Shown here: piece by piece, positions 2,275-63,872 of the stretch
Layout: each line of letters begins with the position of its first letter
Position numbering within the stretch: position 1 is the stretch's first letter
From: Paraburkholderia ginsengiterrae
GTDB taxonomy: Bacteria > Pseudomonadota > Gammaproteobacteria > Burkholderiales > Burkholderiaceae
Reading direction: 5' to 3'
Assembly: GCF_001645125.1 (NCBI RefSeq)
Contig: NZ_LXKA01000022.1
Location: 144,249-208,248 of the forward strand
DNA: 64,000 bases
Notes under the pieces: model-generated
What the model was told of the DNA's origin: nothing
The model's input: only the letters and a program-made list of their open reading frames with translations
The model's database searches: none
Position numbers and translations under genes: made by a program

Positions 2275-2703
2275 TTAGATCTCGAGCGCTTTCGGCTGTT
2301 GTGCCGAATGCGGATGCGTTGCTTCAGCGTAGACCTTCAGCTTCTTGATCATCGCGTAGCCGAGCGGGCCCTTCGGCAGCATGCCCTTGACCGCTTTCTC
2401 GAGCGCACGGCCCGGGAAGCGTTCTTGCATCTTGCCGAACGTCGTTTCATAGATACCGCCCGGGTAGCCCGAATGGCGATAGTACTTCTTGTCAGTCGTC
2501 TTGTTGCCCGTGACCTTCAGCTTGCCGGCGTTGATAACGATGATGAAATCACCGGTGTCGACGTGGGGAGTGAATTCAGGCTTGTGCTTGCCGCGAAGAC
2601 GGTGTGCCACTTCGCTGGCGACACGCCCGAGAACCTTATCCGTCGCGTCAATCACGTACCATTCGCGCGTCACCTCATGGGCTTTTGCGGAAAACGTCTT
2701 CAT
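2275..2703 (-). CDS. rplM: 50S ribosomal protein L13
   Basis: Large-subunit assembly protein L13, 142 aa as in E. coli, starting [20 protein letters not shown]. It is the first gene of the rplM-rpsI operon. A typical bacterial L13 mRNA leader (autoregulatory site) could lie in the roughly 260 bp upstream, but I see no clear structure there. The next transcript upstream is the candidate small RNA ending at 2972 on the same strand, and its strong terminator should insulate rplM from it. Confidence 0.98.
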
Positions 2704-2971
2704 GATCGATCCAAAAAAATTGCTGCGCCCAATGTGTTTTTTCCTGCTTGTAGTGTGCGCATCGAGGCGCGTGCAGGCTCTCCCTGGTTCTTCCTCCGCG
2801 GGCGCGGATGCGGAAAAGCCCTGAATTATAAAGGAATTTGCGACGCCAAGTCAAAACGTACGGGACTTTTGCGCGAATTTCCCGGCCATCGACCGTCCAG
2901 CAGCGCCATTTGCCACCCTGGCAGGCTCGAAACCGGCGTGGCCGCGGGGCCTAAAGGCGGGCTCGCTGGCG

Positions 2972-3061
2972 AAAAAAAACCCGAACGAGCGGTTCGGGTT
3001 TAATCCACCAAAGGAGGAGGTGGAGGAGACAGCGGAGGTTGCACACTTGCTGCAACCGATG
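2972..3061 (-). ncRNA. Candidate small RNA with an anti-Shine-Dalgarno loop
   Basis: Reading the minus strand, a transcript of about 90 nt is framed by a promoter (3068-3096) and a strong intrinsic terminator. It holds three hairpins. The first has a perfect 7-bp stem GGTTGCA/TGCAACC (3037-3057). The second has the stem CCACC/GGTGG (3005-3023) with the loop TCCTCCTTT, an exact complement of the Shine-Dalgarno sequence AAAGGAGGA. The third is a 9-bp stem AACCCGAAC/GTTCGGGTT (2978-3000) followed by eight T. A CU-rich single strand (CTCCGCTGTCTCCTCC) joins the first two. The layout resembles the CU-rich-loop 'cuckoo'/CcsR small RNAs known from alpha- and betaproteobacteria; kinship is inference. 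No credible ORF explains it. Confidence 0.65.
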
Positions 3062-3067
3062 GATCAG

Positions 3068-3096
3068 ATTATATGAGTCCACCTTGTGCGGCGCAA
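3068..3096 (-). promoter_or_regulatory. Sigma70-type promoter of the candidate small RNA
   Basis: On the minus strand TTGCGC (3091-3096) is followed by a 17-bp spacer and a perfect TATAAT (3068-3073). A start about seven bases further on falls at roughly 3061, just before the first hairpin. Confidence 0.65.
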
Positions 3097-3120
3097 GAAG
3101 ATTTGCATCGCGAAATACAA

Positions 3121-3194
3121 TCTCATAATGTGAGAACCGCATTTCTCAGCCTCATTACACTAAATTTCCTTTTAAATCAGATACTAAAAGTATC
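3121..3194. promoter_or_regulatory. Inverted repeats upstream of the small RNA and the OsmC gene
   Basis: TCTCA-TAATG-TGAGA (3121-3135) is a perfect 5-bp inverted repeat, and a further TCTCA follows at 3144-3148. GATACT-AAA-AGTATC (3180-3194) is a second perfect inverted repeat. They lie in an AT-rich stretch between the divergently oriented small RNA and OsmC-family gene. They look like regulator sites, but no regulator can be named. Confidence 0.3.
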
Positions 3195-3393
3195 CAGCAC
3201 GACCGCCTCACCAATCATCTTCTAGAGTAAAACCCCTAAACCCCTGCGGGCATTCCCGAATCGGCCGAACATGCGGCGGCGCAACACGCAAGCCGTCATT
3301 CCGCATAATTTCCAGCAAAAGTCGCCTCGGGCGGATACTCAAACACCGGGCTACAATGCCGTCTCGATATAGCGAAGCGCGGTGGAGCACAGC

Positions 3394-3816
3394 ATGGAAT
3401 GCAAAGTGAGCTGGATGGGGCAAGACGGAATGGCATTTGCGGCCGAGACGGGCAGCGGCCATCTGGTTGCGATGGACGGCGCGCCTGAAGGCGGCGGCCG
3501 CAATCTCGCGCCGCGTCCAATGGAAATGGTGCTGCTCGGCACGGGCGGCTGCACGGCCTACGACGTCGTGATGATCCTGAAGAAGAGCCGGCAGGAAATT
3601 TCTGACTGCTCGGTGACGCTGAAGGCCGAACGCGCCAGCGAAGACCCGAAAGTGTTCACCAAGATCCACTTTCACTTCACCGTGACGGGCAAGAATCTGA
3701 ATCCGGCCACTGTGGAGCGCGCGATCAACTTGTCGCACGACAAATACTGCTCGGCTTCGATCATGATCGCGAAAACCGCTGAGCTGACGCACTCGTTCGA
3801 CATCGTCGCGGGCTGA
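3394..3816 (+). CDS. OsmC/Ohr-family protein
   Basis: Predicted thiol peroxidase-like protein of the OsmC superfamily, 140 aa, closest in layout to the YhfA subgroup. The two cysteines expected of the family are present: Cys53 in LGTGGCTAYDV and Cys119 in DKYCSASIM. The ATG at 3394 is preferred over the in-frame GTG at 3382 because GGAG (3384-3387) lies six bases before it. Its usual role would be removal of organic peroxides, but YhfA-like members are poorly characterised and the substrate is unknown. It ends before a 15-bp-stem terminator. Confidence 0.85.
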   Translation: MECKVSWMGQDGMAFAAETGSGHLVAMDGAPEGGGRNLAPRPMEMVLLGTGGCTAYDVVMILKKSRQEISDCSVTLKAERASEDPKVFTKIHFHFTVTGKNLNPATVERAINLSHDKYCSASIMIAKTAELTHSFDIVAG

Positions 3817-3919: not shown

Positions 3920-4336
<417 letters not shown>

Positions 4337-15614: not shown

Positions 15615-17000
15615 TTACACGACCGCCGCGAGTGCGAAGGTCAAACCCAAGCCCATCAGTGAAATGATGGTTTCGAGGAGCGACCATGTCTTGAAGGTCT
15701 GCCCCACCGTCATACCGAAGTATTCCTTGATCAGCCAGAAACCGCCGTCGTTCACGTGCGAAAAGATCAGCGAGCCCGAGCCGGTGGCGAGCACCAGCAG
15801 TTCCGGCTTGACCTGCACGCCGCTCGCCGCCGCGATCGGCGCGACGATCCCGCACGCGGTCGTCATCGCAACGGTTGCCGAGCCGGTCGCAAGACGGATC
15901 ATTGCCGCGACCATCCAGCCGAACAGCAGCGGCGACAGATGCGCCGCGGTCGCCACGTTGACGATTTCCTTCGAAATGCCGCTATCCATCAGCACGCGCC
16001 CGAAACCGCCGCCCGCGCCGACGATCAGCGTAATGCCCGCGATCGGCGCGAGACATTCGCCGCAGAACTTCTGGATCTGCTCGCGATTGAAACCGCGGCT
16101 CGCACCGAAGGTCCAGAAGCTGACCAGCACGGCGATCAGCAGCGCGACGTCCGAATTGCCGACGAAGTGCAGCAGGTCGTTCGGCAAGGTTTTCGGCGTG
16201 GAGACGAGATCGGCCCAGCTTCCGACCAGCATCAGGATCACCGGCAACAGAATCGTGACCAGCGTCACGCCGAAGCTCGGCAGTTCGCGCTTCGGCGCTA
16301 CGTTCTGCGCGCCGTTCTTAGCGGCATCATCGTGACCGAGGAATTGCGCGGCGAGCGCGTTTTCCTTCGGCAGCTTGATATAGCGGCTGATCAGCAGCGC
16401 GAACAGCGGACCGGCGACGATCGCGGTCGGCACGCCGACGATCAAGCCATACGCGATGGTTTTGCCGATATCCGCGTGATACGCCTGCACGGCGAGCATC
16501 GCGGCCGGGTGCGGCGGAAGCAGCCCGTGCACGACGGACAGACCCGCAACCATCGGCAAGCCGACCAGCAGCAGCGATTTGTTGGTGCGCTTCGCGACGT
16601 TGAAAGCGATCGGAACCAGCAGCACGAAACCGACTTCGAAGAACACCGGCAAGCCGACGATGATCGCGACGACCACCATTGCCCAGTGGATGTTCTTCTC
16701 GCCAAAGAAGTTGATCAGCGTGGTGGCGATGCGCTCGGCACCGCCGGACTCGGCCATCATCTTGCCGAGCATGGTGCCCAGGCCGACCACGATGGCAATG
16801 TGCCCAAGCGTGTTGCCGTTACCGGTTTCGAACGATTTGACGATGGTCGCCATCGGCATGCCGGCTGCAAGACCCAGCAGCAGCGACACGATGATCAGGA
16901 CAAGGAACGGATACACCTTGTAGCGCGTGATCATCAAGATCAGCAAGGCGATGGCGATCACCGCGTAGACCAGCAGCATACTGCCGTGGACAGCTTCCAT
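15615..17000 (-). CDS. GntP-family gluconate:H+ symporter
   Basis: Inner-membrane permease of 461 aa with about a dozen hydrophobic segments. Family motifs include GLPVFFEVGFVLL near residue 117, LPPHPAA near 162 and SGSLIFSHVNDGGFWL near 413. Together with GntK it should import and phosphorylate gluconate. The ATG at 17000 has AGGAGG seven bases upstream. A terminator at 17160-17208 separates it from eda, so it is probably a separate transcription unit from edd-eda. GntT, GntU and GntP cannot be told apart here. Confidence 0.9.
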   Translation of the reverse strand: MEAVHGSMLLVYAVIAIALLILMITRYKVYPFLVLIIVSLLLGLAAGMPMATIVKSFETGNGNTLGHIAIVVGLGTMLGKMMAESGGAERIATTLINFFGEKNIHWAMVVVAIIVGLPVFFEVGFVLLVPIAFNVAKRTNKSLLLVGLPMVAGLSVVHGLLPPHPAAMLAVQAYHADIGKTIAYGLIVGVPTAIVAGPLFALLISRYIKLPKENALAAQFLGHDDAAKNGAQNVAPKRELPSFGVTLVTILLPVILMLVGSWADLVSTPKTLPNDLLHFVGNSDVALLIAVLVSFWTFGASRGFNREQIQKFCGECLAPIAGITLIVGAGGGFGRVLMDSGISKEIVNVATAAHLSPLLFGWMVAAMIRLATGSATVAMTTACGIVAPIAAASGVQVKPELLVLATGSGSLIFSHVNDGGFWLIKEYFGMTVGQTFKTWSLLETIISLMGLGLTFALAAVV

Positions 17001-17159
17001 GAAGCTCCTCCTTTTGCGTTATTGATTGTGTGCCGGACACGAACCGGCATCTTGTCTCACGGCGACCTGTGCGGAGCCAGAAAACCGGGCGAGCCGCGCG
17101 GACGCTGAATTTTACTGTTTGCTGTCTGAAAAGTACGCCCTTACCACGCACCTATTACA

Positions 17160-63624: not shown

Positions 63625-63872
63625 ATGCGATCTCCAGTTGTTGACTTGGATCGCCCGACACGCATTTACAAGCTGGGTGAGCGGGCACAATGATAGGGTT
63701 AACAGACCGGCGCGTAGCACCACAAACCGGCGAGCCGCGAGGCTCCCCCACCAAAGACCCGCCCATAGAAGACAGACGAGCAAAGGCAGCCGCACACCTG
63801 CTTGCGCAAAGGTACGGGGTGTTACGCTTTATAGGCTGTTAAACCTGTTTGCCGTGGAATGCACGACCAAAT

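What the first reader, a model, noticed from the sequence alone, without database searches (positions are those of the whole stretch)
2972..3096. Unannotated small RNA whose loop is an exact anti-Shine-Dalgarno sequence
On the minus strand a TTGCGC-17-TATAAT promoter is followed by about 90 nt of three clean hairpins. The middle loop reads TCCTCCTTT, perfectly complementary to AAAGGAGGA, flanked by more CU-rich single strand, and the last hairpin is a strong terminator with eight T. Such loops in known small RNAs bind ribosome-binding sites or sequester proteins. Upstream of rplM, it could be a stress- or growth-linked post-transcriptional regulator.
Basis: partly seen in the sequence, partly recalled or inferred. 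Interest (0 to 1): 0.78.

Follow-up and report, generated by a model that had tools for sequence, protein, structure and literature searches.

The report
Known anti-Shine-Dalgarno small regulatory RNA
The feature is real, but it is the local copy of an already described family of small RNAs in Burkholderia and its relatives that is thought to block the ribosome-binding sites of nutrient-uptake genes, so it is known rather than new.

Summary
The minus strand 3060-2972 encodes a predicted 89-nt RNA with a TTGCGC-17-TATAAT promoter, three hairpins and an intrinsic terminator. It folds far better than shuffled sequence (z -5.3), and helices 1 and 3 covary among relatives.

It is not an undescribed RNA. 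Rfam RF02278, "Betaproteobacteria toxic small RNA", matches at 71.7 bits against a gathering score of 50. Its place between rplM and osmC and its length fit ncS27 (bdhR1) of B. cenocepacia, a published 92-nt RNA with overexpression and silencing phenotypes. Bordetella S17 appears to be the same gene.

Most likely mechanism: two C/U-rich single-stranded stretches pair with Shine-Dalgarno sites and lower translation of nutrient-uptake and catabolic genes when growth slows. In this genome, complementary start sites precede transport genes in 11 of 19 cases, against 5 of 27 controls, including a gluconate permease inside the window; this test was designed after the first hits.

The neighbour kept most widely is osmC, rather than rplM. 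A conserved row of dyads upstream of the promoter is the remaining lead; I could not name its regulator.

The parts
2972..3060 (-). sRNA gene, RF02278 family, apparent orthologue of B. cenocepacia ncS27 (bdhR1); predicted primary transcript 89 nt
   Evidence: cmscan 71.7 bits at 2971-3031; promoter and T-run positions; fold z -5.31
3091..3096 (-). -35 hexamer TTGCGC, inside a dyad-like block (3083-3099) whose TTGCGYCGCAYMA core also lies at the promoters of two paralogues in this genome
   Evidence: sequence; conservation; pattern search
3068..3073 (-). -10 hexamer TATAAT
   Evidence: sequence; mean majority fraction 0.97 in 54 sequences (coordinates corrected by one)
3101..3116 (-). conserved upstream dyad ATTTCGCGATGCAAAT, candidate operator
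   Evidence: mean majority fraction 0.93 in 54 sequences, against 0.38 in the upstream flank and 0.50 in the downstream flank (its printed coordinates are one too low, corrected here)
3120..3134 (-). conserved upstream dyad CTCACATTATGAGAT, candidate operator
   Evidence: mean majority fraction 0.78 in 54 sequences (coordinates corrected by one)
3037..3057 (-). hairpin 1 (5' leader hairpin), inferred to be removed by processing as in ncS27
   Evidence: fold; 4 of 5 consensus pairs show changes on both sides in 38 chosen sequences; processing inferred
3021..3031 (-). site 1: single-stranded anti-Shine-Dalgarno stretch UGUCUCCUCCA; GUCUCCUCCA is shared by the four copies in this genome
   Evidence: 91 of 94 fetched loci matched the core motif
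3004..3024 (-). hairpin 2; loop UCCUCCUUU at 3010-3018 is anti-Shine-Dalgarno site 2
   Evidence: fold; helix 2 has 5 of 6 pairs that never vary in 38 sequences
2972..3001 (-). intrinsic terminator: stem 3001-2977 with T-run 2979-2972
   Evidence: 3 of 9 pairs with both-sided changes
2275..2703 (-). rplM (ribosomal protein L13), downstream on the same strand, with its own promoter-like site at 2825-2854
   Evidence: Pfam PF00572; promoter scan 11 of 12
3382..3816 (+). OsmC-like gene, divergent; the neighbour most widely conserved beside the sRNA
   Evidence: Pfam PF02566; 68 of 80 named loci
15618..17000 (-). gluconate permease (GntP family), candidate target; start-site stretch AAAGGAGGAGCTTCATG at 16998-17014 is complementary to the loop of hairpin 2
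   Evidence: conservation of the site is limited

Best explanation
An ordinary, well-conserved member of Rfam RF02278 ('Betaproteobacteria toxic small RNA', also called 'double-hairpin RNA'), and by position and sequence the orthologue of B. cenocepacia ncS27 (bdhR1) and Bordetella S17. A sigma-70-type promoter makes a primary transcript of about 89 nt that ends at an intrinsic terminator (sequence and covariation: shown here; transcription: published for the kin, inferred here). The 5' hairpin is probably removed, perhaps by RNase E, to leave a short RNA that begins near the UGUCUCCUCC stretch (inferred from ncS27 and S17). The two C/U-rich single-stranded sites pair, probably with Hfq, with Shine-Dalgarno regions and hinder ribosome entry on many mRNAs for uptake and breakdown of carbon sources, slowing metabolism when nutrients or growth decline (mechanism published for the kin; complementarity in this genome shown here; regulation in this organism not tested).
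For: RF02278 at 71.7 bits, gathering 50, full model 1-64; four matches in the genome, three over the cut-off; 98 of 98 genomes sampled from the genus, own included, have a match over the cut-off. The rplM-sRNA-osmC order is present in named Burkholderia loci, among them B. aenigmatica (a Bcc species by recall), with a predicted length of 90-93 nt; ncS27 is 92 nt, on the minus strand between BCAL3348a and BCAL3349. Covariation in 38 chosen sequences: 7 of 20 pairs with changes on both sides, 0 of 500 shuffles as high, and at most 3 such pairs when the partner is slid by 1-3 columns. Published for ncS27: dRNA-seq start and 3' RACE, 9.7-fold rise in biofilm, planktonic growth attenuated by overexpression and raised by silencing; targets in amino-acid and sugar use (a review). 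Published for S17: RNase E processing, pairing of sites 1 and 2 with RBSs, compensatory mutations restoring regulation of a sigma-54 activator. In this genome, start sites complementary to site 1 or 2 precede 11 transport genes of 19, against 5 of 27 controls (one-sided Fisher p 0.007); the same list holds AMP-binding, acyl-CoA dehydrogenase, ring-hydroxylase and sigma-54 activator genes.
Against: No transcript data for this organism were available. The target test was designed after the first hits; gene classes may prefer different Shine-Dalgarno forms for other reasons; with other groupings p is 0.03 (ATP synthase subunits counted as transport), 0.04 or 0.08 (uptake only, 8 of 19 against 4 or 5 of 27). 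The exact site-2 match before gntP is present in 3 of 30 orthologue loci, the window's own among them; AAGGAGGAG is present in 7 of 30. In biofilms, changing ncS27 levels had no significant effect. ncS27 orthology rests on position, length and family, because the J2315 sequence itself was not fetched. S17S overexpression did not impair exponential growth of E. coli, so 'toxic' need not describe all members. Shuffle controls ignore relatedness of the sequences.
Confidence: 0.9

Rival explanations
1. Protein-binding decoy: the loops bind and titrate a regulator protein (CsrA/RsmA-like or another) rather than mRNAs.
For: Loop-displayed repeated motifs are the usual form of such decoys (recalled); the hairpin-2 loop does display the C/U motif.
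Against: CsrA-type sponges display GGA in loops (recalled); the transcript's only GGA is at the base of stem 2. Compensatory mutations for S17 and site mutations for NmsR-A argue for RNA-RNA pairing in the kin. Other proteins were not tested.
Confidence: 0.04
2. General translation brake: the RNA mimics the 16S rRNA 3' tail and lowers initiation broadly, a growth-arrest factor without chosen targets.
For: The family is reported toxic in E. coli when cloned; CACCUCC resembles the 16S tail (recalled); plasmids with nmsRB could not be brought into E. coli.
Against: S17S overexpression did not impair exponential growth of E. coli; 91-92 genes rose in the S17 deletion, a limited set; complementary start sites here lean to transport genes; native levels may be far below ribosome number (inference).
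Confidence: 0.06
3. A cis element or attenuator of the downstream rplM-rpsI operon.
For: Same strand, with rplM starting 269 bp beyond the T-run in the window.
Against: A terminator between them and a separate promoter-like site for rplM scoring 11 of 12; rplM within 1.5 kb downstream in only 35 of 80 named loci, at 165 to 726 bp from the start of the core; paralogues lie elsewhere in the genome.
Confidence: 0.02

Closest known systems
RF02278 Betaproteobacteria toxic small RNA; ncS27/bdhR1 of Burkholderia cenocepacia J2315
   Same: Family model, anti-Shine-Dalgarno sites, terminator, length (about 89 against 92 nt), position between rplM and osmC, a 5' part that the paralogues lack.
   Different: The window copy has ACCTCC where the named Burkholderia sensu stricto loci have ACCCTCC, and rplM starts 327 bp from the start of the core rather than 711-726 bp as in L131, L146 and L187. 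No functional difference is indicated.
S17 / S17S of Bordetella pertussis
   Same: Same core in two Bordetella species with osmC nearby; a COQ7 gene next to the sRNA in Bordetella genomosp. 2, as published for S17.
   Different: S17 has a 190-nt precursor and is linked to the Bvg mode; the window RNA has a short leader hairpin.
NmsR-A/NmsR-B (NgncR_162/163) of Neisseria; Rfam RF02877 (NmsRb)
   Same: Three stem-loops with anti-SD sites between SL1 and SL2 and in the SL2 loop; control of nutrient uptake and central metabolism (abstract).
   Different: The RF02877 model scores 28.3 bits, below its gathering score 52; NmsRs are tandem siblings with TCA-cycle targets.
anti-hemB, Rfam RF02837
   Same: CCUCC loop followed by a terminator; partial resemblance to the model.
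   Different: 27.9 bits, below gathering 49.5.
Cuckoo RNAs of alphaproteobacteria (recalled; no paper read here)
   Same: Anti-SD CUCCUCCC loops (recalled).
   Different: Different family; not tested here.

Membership tests
RF02278 Betaproteobacteria toxic small RNA | Covariance model score at or above gathering (50 bits) | tested here: met
   71.7 bits, whole model 1-64
RF02278 Betaproteobacteria toxic small RNA | Double hairpin: C/U-loop hairpin followed by terminator, kept in relatives | tested here: met
   Fold and pair counts; helix 2 is nearly invariant, so covariation comes from the terminator helix (and from the extra leader helix 1)
RF02278 Betaproteobacteria toxic small RNA | Toxic to E. 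coli when cloned | not testable with these tools
   Reported for the family (passages); Kimelman 2012 itself not held
ncS27 (bdhR1) orthologue group | Position between rplM and osmC, with a leader ahead of site 1 and about 92-nt length | tested here: met
   J2315 sequence not fetched, compared by published position, length and neighbouring genes
S17 of Bordetella | 27-nt conserved core and locus beside coq7 | tested here: inconclusive
   Core GTCTCCTCCACCCTCCTCCTTTGGTGGATT in Bordetella genomosp. 2 and 12 with osmC nearby, COQ7 adjacent in genomosp. 2. The window copy differs by one missing C and is not beside coq7; the S17 letters themselves were not seen.
NmsR (RF02877) | Covariance model score at or above gathering (52 bits) | tested here: not met
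   28.3 bits
CsrA/RsmA-sponge RNA (RsmY/Z type) | Several GGA motifs in hairpin loops (recalled) | tested here: not met
   One GGA, at the foot of a stem

The most novel reading that the evidence does not exclude
The ncS27-type copy is the separately controlled member of the family. A row of dyads, at about 18-bp spacing and ending over the -35, binds one unidentified nutrient-sensing regulator. The TTGCGYCGCAYMA core over the -35 is shared by the promoters of the two other copies above the Rfam cut-off in this genome and, by eye, by no other promoter-like site there, so one protein could set the level of most of the sRNA family.
Probability: 0.3. Interest if true: 0.45.

Novelty: already known. 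Interest (0 to 1): 0.2.

Why it matters
A striking anti-Shine-Dalgarno loop found by eye is a correct catch of a real sRNA, but of one already in Rfam and studied in Burkholderia and Bordetella. What remains is small: the link to osmC in many Burkholderiales, an in-genome list of candidate target start sites, and a conserved upstream dyad array. The 2017 ncS27 paper says that what regulates accumulation of these sRNAs was unknown (passage), so the array gives a starting point. I made no dedicated literature search for such an operator.

Tried and rejected
Rejected: rplM leader or attenuator (own promoter-like site, terminator, variable linkage). Rejected: CsrA-type sponge. Rejected as family: NmsR RF02877 and anti-hemB RF02837, both under gathering. 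Searched for other genes with the upstream motifs: TTGCGYCGCAYMA gave 11 matches in the genome (7 for the reversed control); 3 are sRNA promoters and the other 8 show no -10-like box at a suitable distance by eye. The O2-to-O3 pattern with up to 3 mismatches occurs only at this locus, so no regulator could be named. Target-site conservation for gntP was weak: AAAGGAGGA in 3 of 30 loci, own included, AAGGAGGAG in 7 of 30. The dicarboxylate-symporter search brought one close relative (89%) and otherwise proteins at 49% identity or less and was not analysed further. ARAGORN found no tRNA in the window. The ORF over the C4-like hit near 63.7 kb had no PHROGs match.

Rows dropped before counts: one search set aside 2 duplicate places and, by my cut of 60 aa, 5 of 24 target sites and 3 of 30 control sites; only 30 of 53 control matches had loci. 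The transport/non-transport grouping is mine, from Pfam names. Alignment A1 used 38 sequences (window plus 37 of 75 distinct cores) chosen by me; left out were near-duplicates and sequences where the leader hairpin is absent or not alignable (for example L062, L063, L088-L092, L099, L111, L112, L121, L122). The core regex requires GTCTCCTCCACC, so invariance of that stretch inside A1 is by construction; of 94 loci tried, 91 matched it and L093, L119 and L120 did not. About a dozen genomes are in that set twice. One search printed coordinates one too low; corrected here. In the family search 32 of 120 genomes had no match to the 678-base region.

Full report
What is there. On the minus strand TTGCGC (3096-3091), 17 nt and TATAAT (3073-3068) precede a transcript that should start at 3060 or 3061 and end in the T-run 2979-2972. 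The RNA folds into hairpin 1 (3057-3037), a single-stranded stretch with UGUCUCCUCC, hairpin 2 (3024-3004, loop UCCUCCUUU) and a terminator, at -33.7 kcal/mol with z -5.31. The loop 9-mer is expected 0.05 times in the window and occurs twice; the second place is the complement of a Shine-Dalgarno site on the other strand.

It is a known family. cmscan of the window gives RF02278 at 71.7 bits, gathering 50, over the whole model. The genome holds four matches, three over the cut-off. In 98 of 98 genomes sampled from the genus, own included, there is a match over the cut-off, with 3 to 10 matches per genome at E up to 0.001.

It is conserved as an RNA. In 38 sequences that I chose from the fetched family loci, 7 of 20 pairs show changes on both sides and 0 of 500 shuffles reach the observed values; sliding the partner by 1-3 columns gives at most 3 such pairs. 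The shuffles ignore relatedness, so they are not a probability. Helix 1 has 4 such pairs of 5, helix 3 has 3 of 9, and helix 2 hardly varies. Helix 2 and site 1 are therefore constrained in sequence, as expected if they contact other RNAs, though the core motif was also my selection rule (91 of 94 loci fetched by DNA similarity or chosen from such matches carry it). The leader hairpin is not universal: in some genera the -10-like box lies just upstream of site 1, and in others the leader is longer (by eye). The two other copies above the cut-off in this genome have a -10-like box just upstream of site 1, so they probably start there without a leader.

Where it sits. Of 91 fetched family loci with the core (some genomes twice), a divergent OsmC-like gene lies within 1.5 kb upstream in 86 and rplM within 1.5 kb downstream in 84; many of these were fetched with the intergenic region itself as query, so they lean to this arrangement. 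In the broader family search 88 of 120 genomes matched the 678-base region at all; 32 did not. Among 80 loci found by the core motif alone, osmC lies within 1.5 kb upstream, divergent, in 68 and rplM within 1.5 kb downstream in 35. Of the 12 without osmC, 9 loci end within about 1.03 kb upstream; of the 45 without rplM, 5 end within 800 bp downstream. In Bordetella genomosp. 2 the core lies next to a COQ7 gene with osmC beyond it; S17 of B. pertussis is published as lying between a glycosyltransferase gene and coq7 (passages). In named Burkholderia loci L131, L146 (B. aenigmatica) and L187, rplM starts 711-726 bp from the core and the predicted length is 90-93 nt. This fits ncS27 of J2315: 92 nt, minus strand, between BCAL3348a and BCAL3349 (table).

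What is published (passages read unless stated). PMC5688073: RF02278 homologues ncS03, ncS05, ncS27 and ncS62, called double-hairpin RNAs; ncS27 can be processed to a short form; it is up 9.7-fold in biofilm and 2.4- to 4.3-fold in stationary phase, starvation and glucose medium, with no significant change in osmotic stress, low pH or low iron; overexpression slows and silencing speeds planktonic growth, with no significant effect in biofilms; predicted targets of the double-hairpin RNAs include gluconate permease and other sugar and amino-acid genes. PMC10987360, a review: NcS27 affects genes of phenylalanine and tyrosine catabolism and carbohydrate transport and may balance metabolic shutdown. 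PMC12013268: ncS03 and ncS27 among 14 'core detrimental fitness genes' in two host models. PMC11722255: S17 is processed by RNase E, is Hfq-dependent, pairs through sites 1 and 2 with RBSs, including that of a sigma-54 activator, and resembles bdhR1 (section 12 read). PMC7011215: four family members in Herbaspirillum. PMC5362039, section 8 read: NmsR-A has the same three-stem-loop plan with two anti-SD sites. PMC9973317: abstract only. Kimelman 2012 and Sass 2019 were not seen.

How it works here. I searched the genome for start sites complementary to site 1 (GGAGGAGAC...ATG, 17 places, 0 in the reversed control) and to site 2 (AAAGGAGGA...ATG, 9 places, 1 in the control). After removing 2 duplicates and 5 sites without an ORF of 60 aa, 19 proteins remained. 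By Pfam, 11 are membrane transport or outer-membrane channel proteins: dicarboxylate symporter, amino-acid permease, three MFS, GntP, ABC permease, porin, OmpW, an efflux outer-membrane protein and an SMR protein. Others are an AMP-binding enzyme, an acyl-CoA dehydrogenase, a Rieske ring hydroxylase and a sigma-54 activator; 4 have no Pfam match. Of 27 controls with another strong SD (MAAGGAGT), 5 are transport proteins by the same reading. One-sided Fisher p is 0.007; it is 0.03 if ATP synthase subunits count as transport, and 0.04 or 0.08 for uptake alone, 8 of 19 against 4 or 5 of 27 depending on one protein. This was designed after the first hits, so it is supportive, not decisive. The overlap with published S17 and ncS27 target classes (transporters, a fatty-acid ligase, sigma-54 activators) is notable. 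The exact site before gntP is present in 3 of 30 orthologue loci, own included, and AAGGAGGAG in 7 of 30, so individual targets drift.

Upstream control. In 54 sequences from genus and family loci, two dyads upstream of the promoter (3101-3116 and 3120-3134) and a dyad-like block over the -35 (3083-3099) have mean majority fractions of 0.93, 0.78 and 0.81, against 0.38 in the far-upstream flank, 0.50 in the downstream flank and 0.55 in the promoter spacer (coordinates corrected by one). The core of the block over the -35 recurs at the two other copies above the cut-off. The 2017 paper mentions a common upstream motif for three homologues (its Fig. S3 not seen) and says that the regulation was unknown. 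I could not name a regulator.

Verdict. Observation confirmed; interpretation right in kind, but the RNA belongs to a described family and appears to be the orthologue of a studied sRNA. Interest is low.

Noticed in passing
window 3083-3134: Phased, conserved dyads upstream of and over the sRNA -35, candidate operators for an unknown regulator.
   Followed up: partly
L018, near 1490-1510: A paralogue in another genome of the genus (G084) carries a tandem extra copy of the TGTCTCCTCCA unit, giving a third anti-Shine-Dalgarno repeat.
   Followed up: no
L004 (G000:C374:121-188): A fourth, sub-threshold copy (41.3 bits) with a TATGAT box just upstream and a terminator-like end; a diverged family member.
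   Followed up: no
window 63673-63770, minus strand: C4 antisense RNA match (RF01695, 52 bits, gathering 45), which may mark a prophage remnant; the ORF overlapping it has no PHROGs match.
   Followed up: partly
window 3920-4333, minus strand: RNase P RNA (RF00010, 296.9 bits), close to the sRNA on the same strand.
   Followed up: no
window 3180-3194: Perfect inverted repeat GATACT-AAA-AGTATC in the osmC-sRNA intergenic region; its nearby columns are moderately conserved and may belong to the osmC promoter.
   Followed up: no
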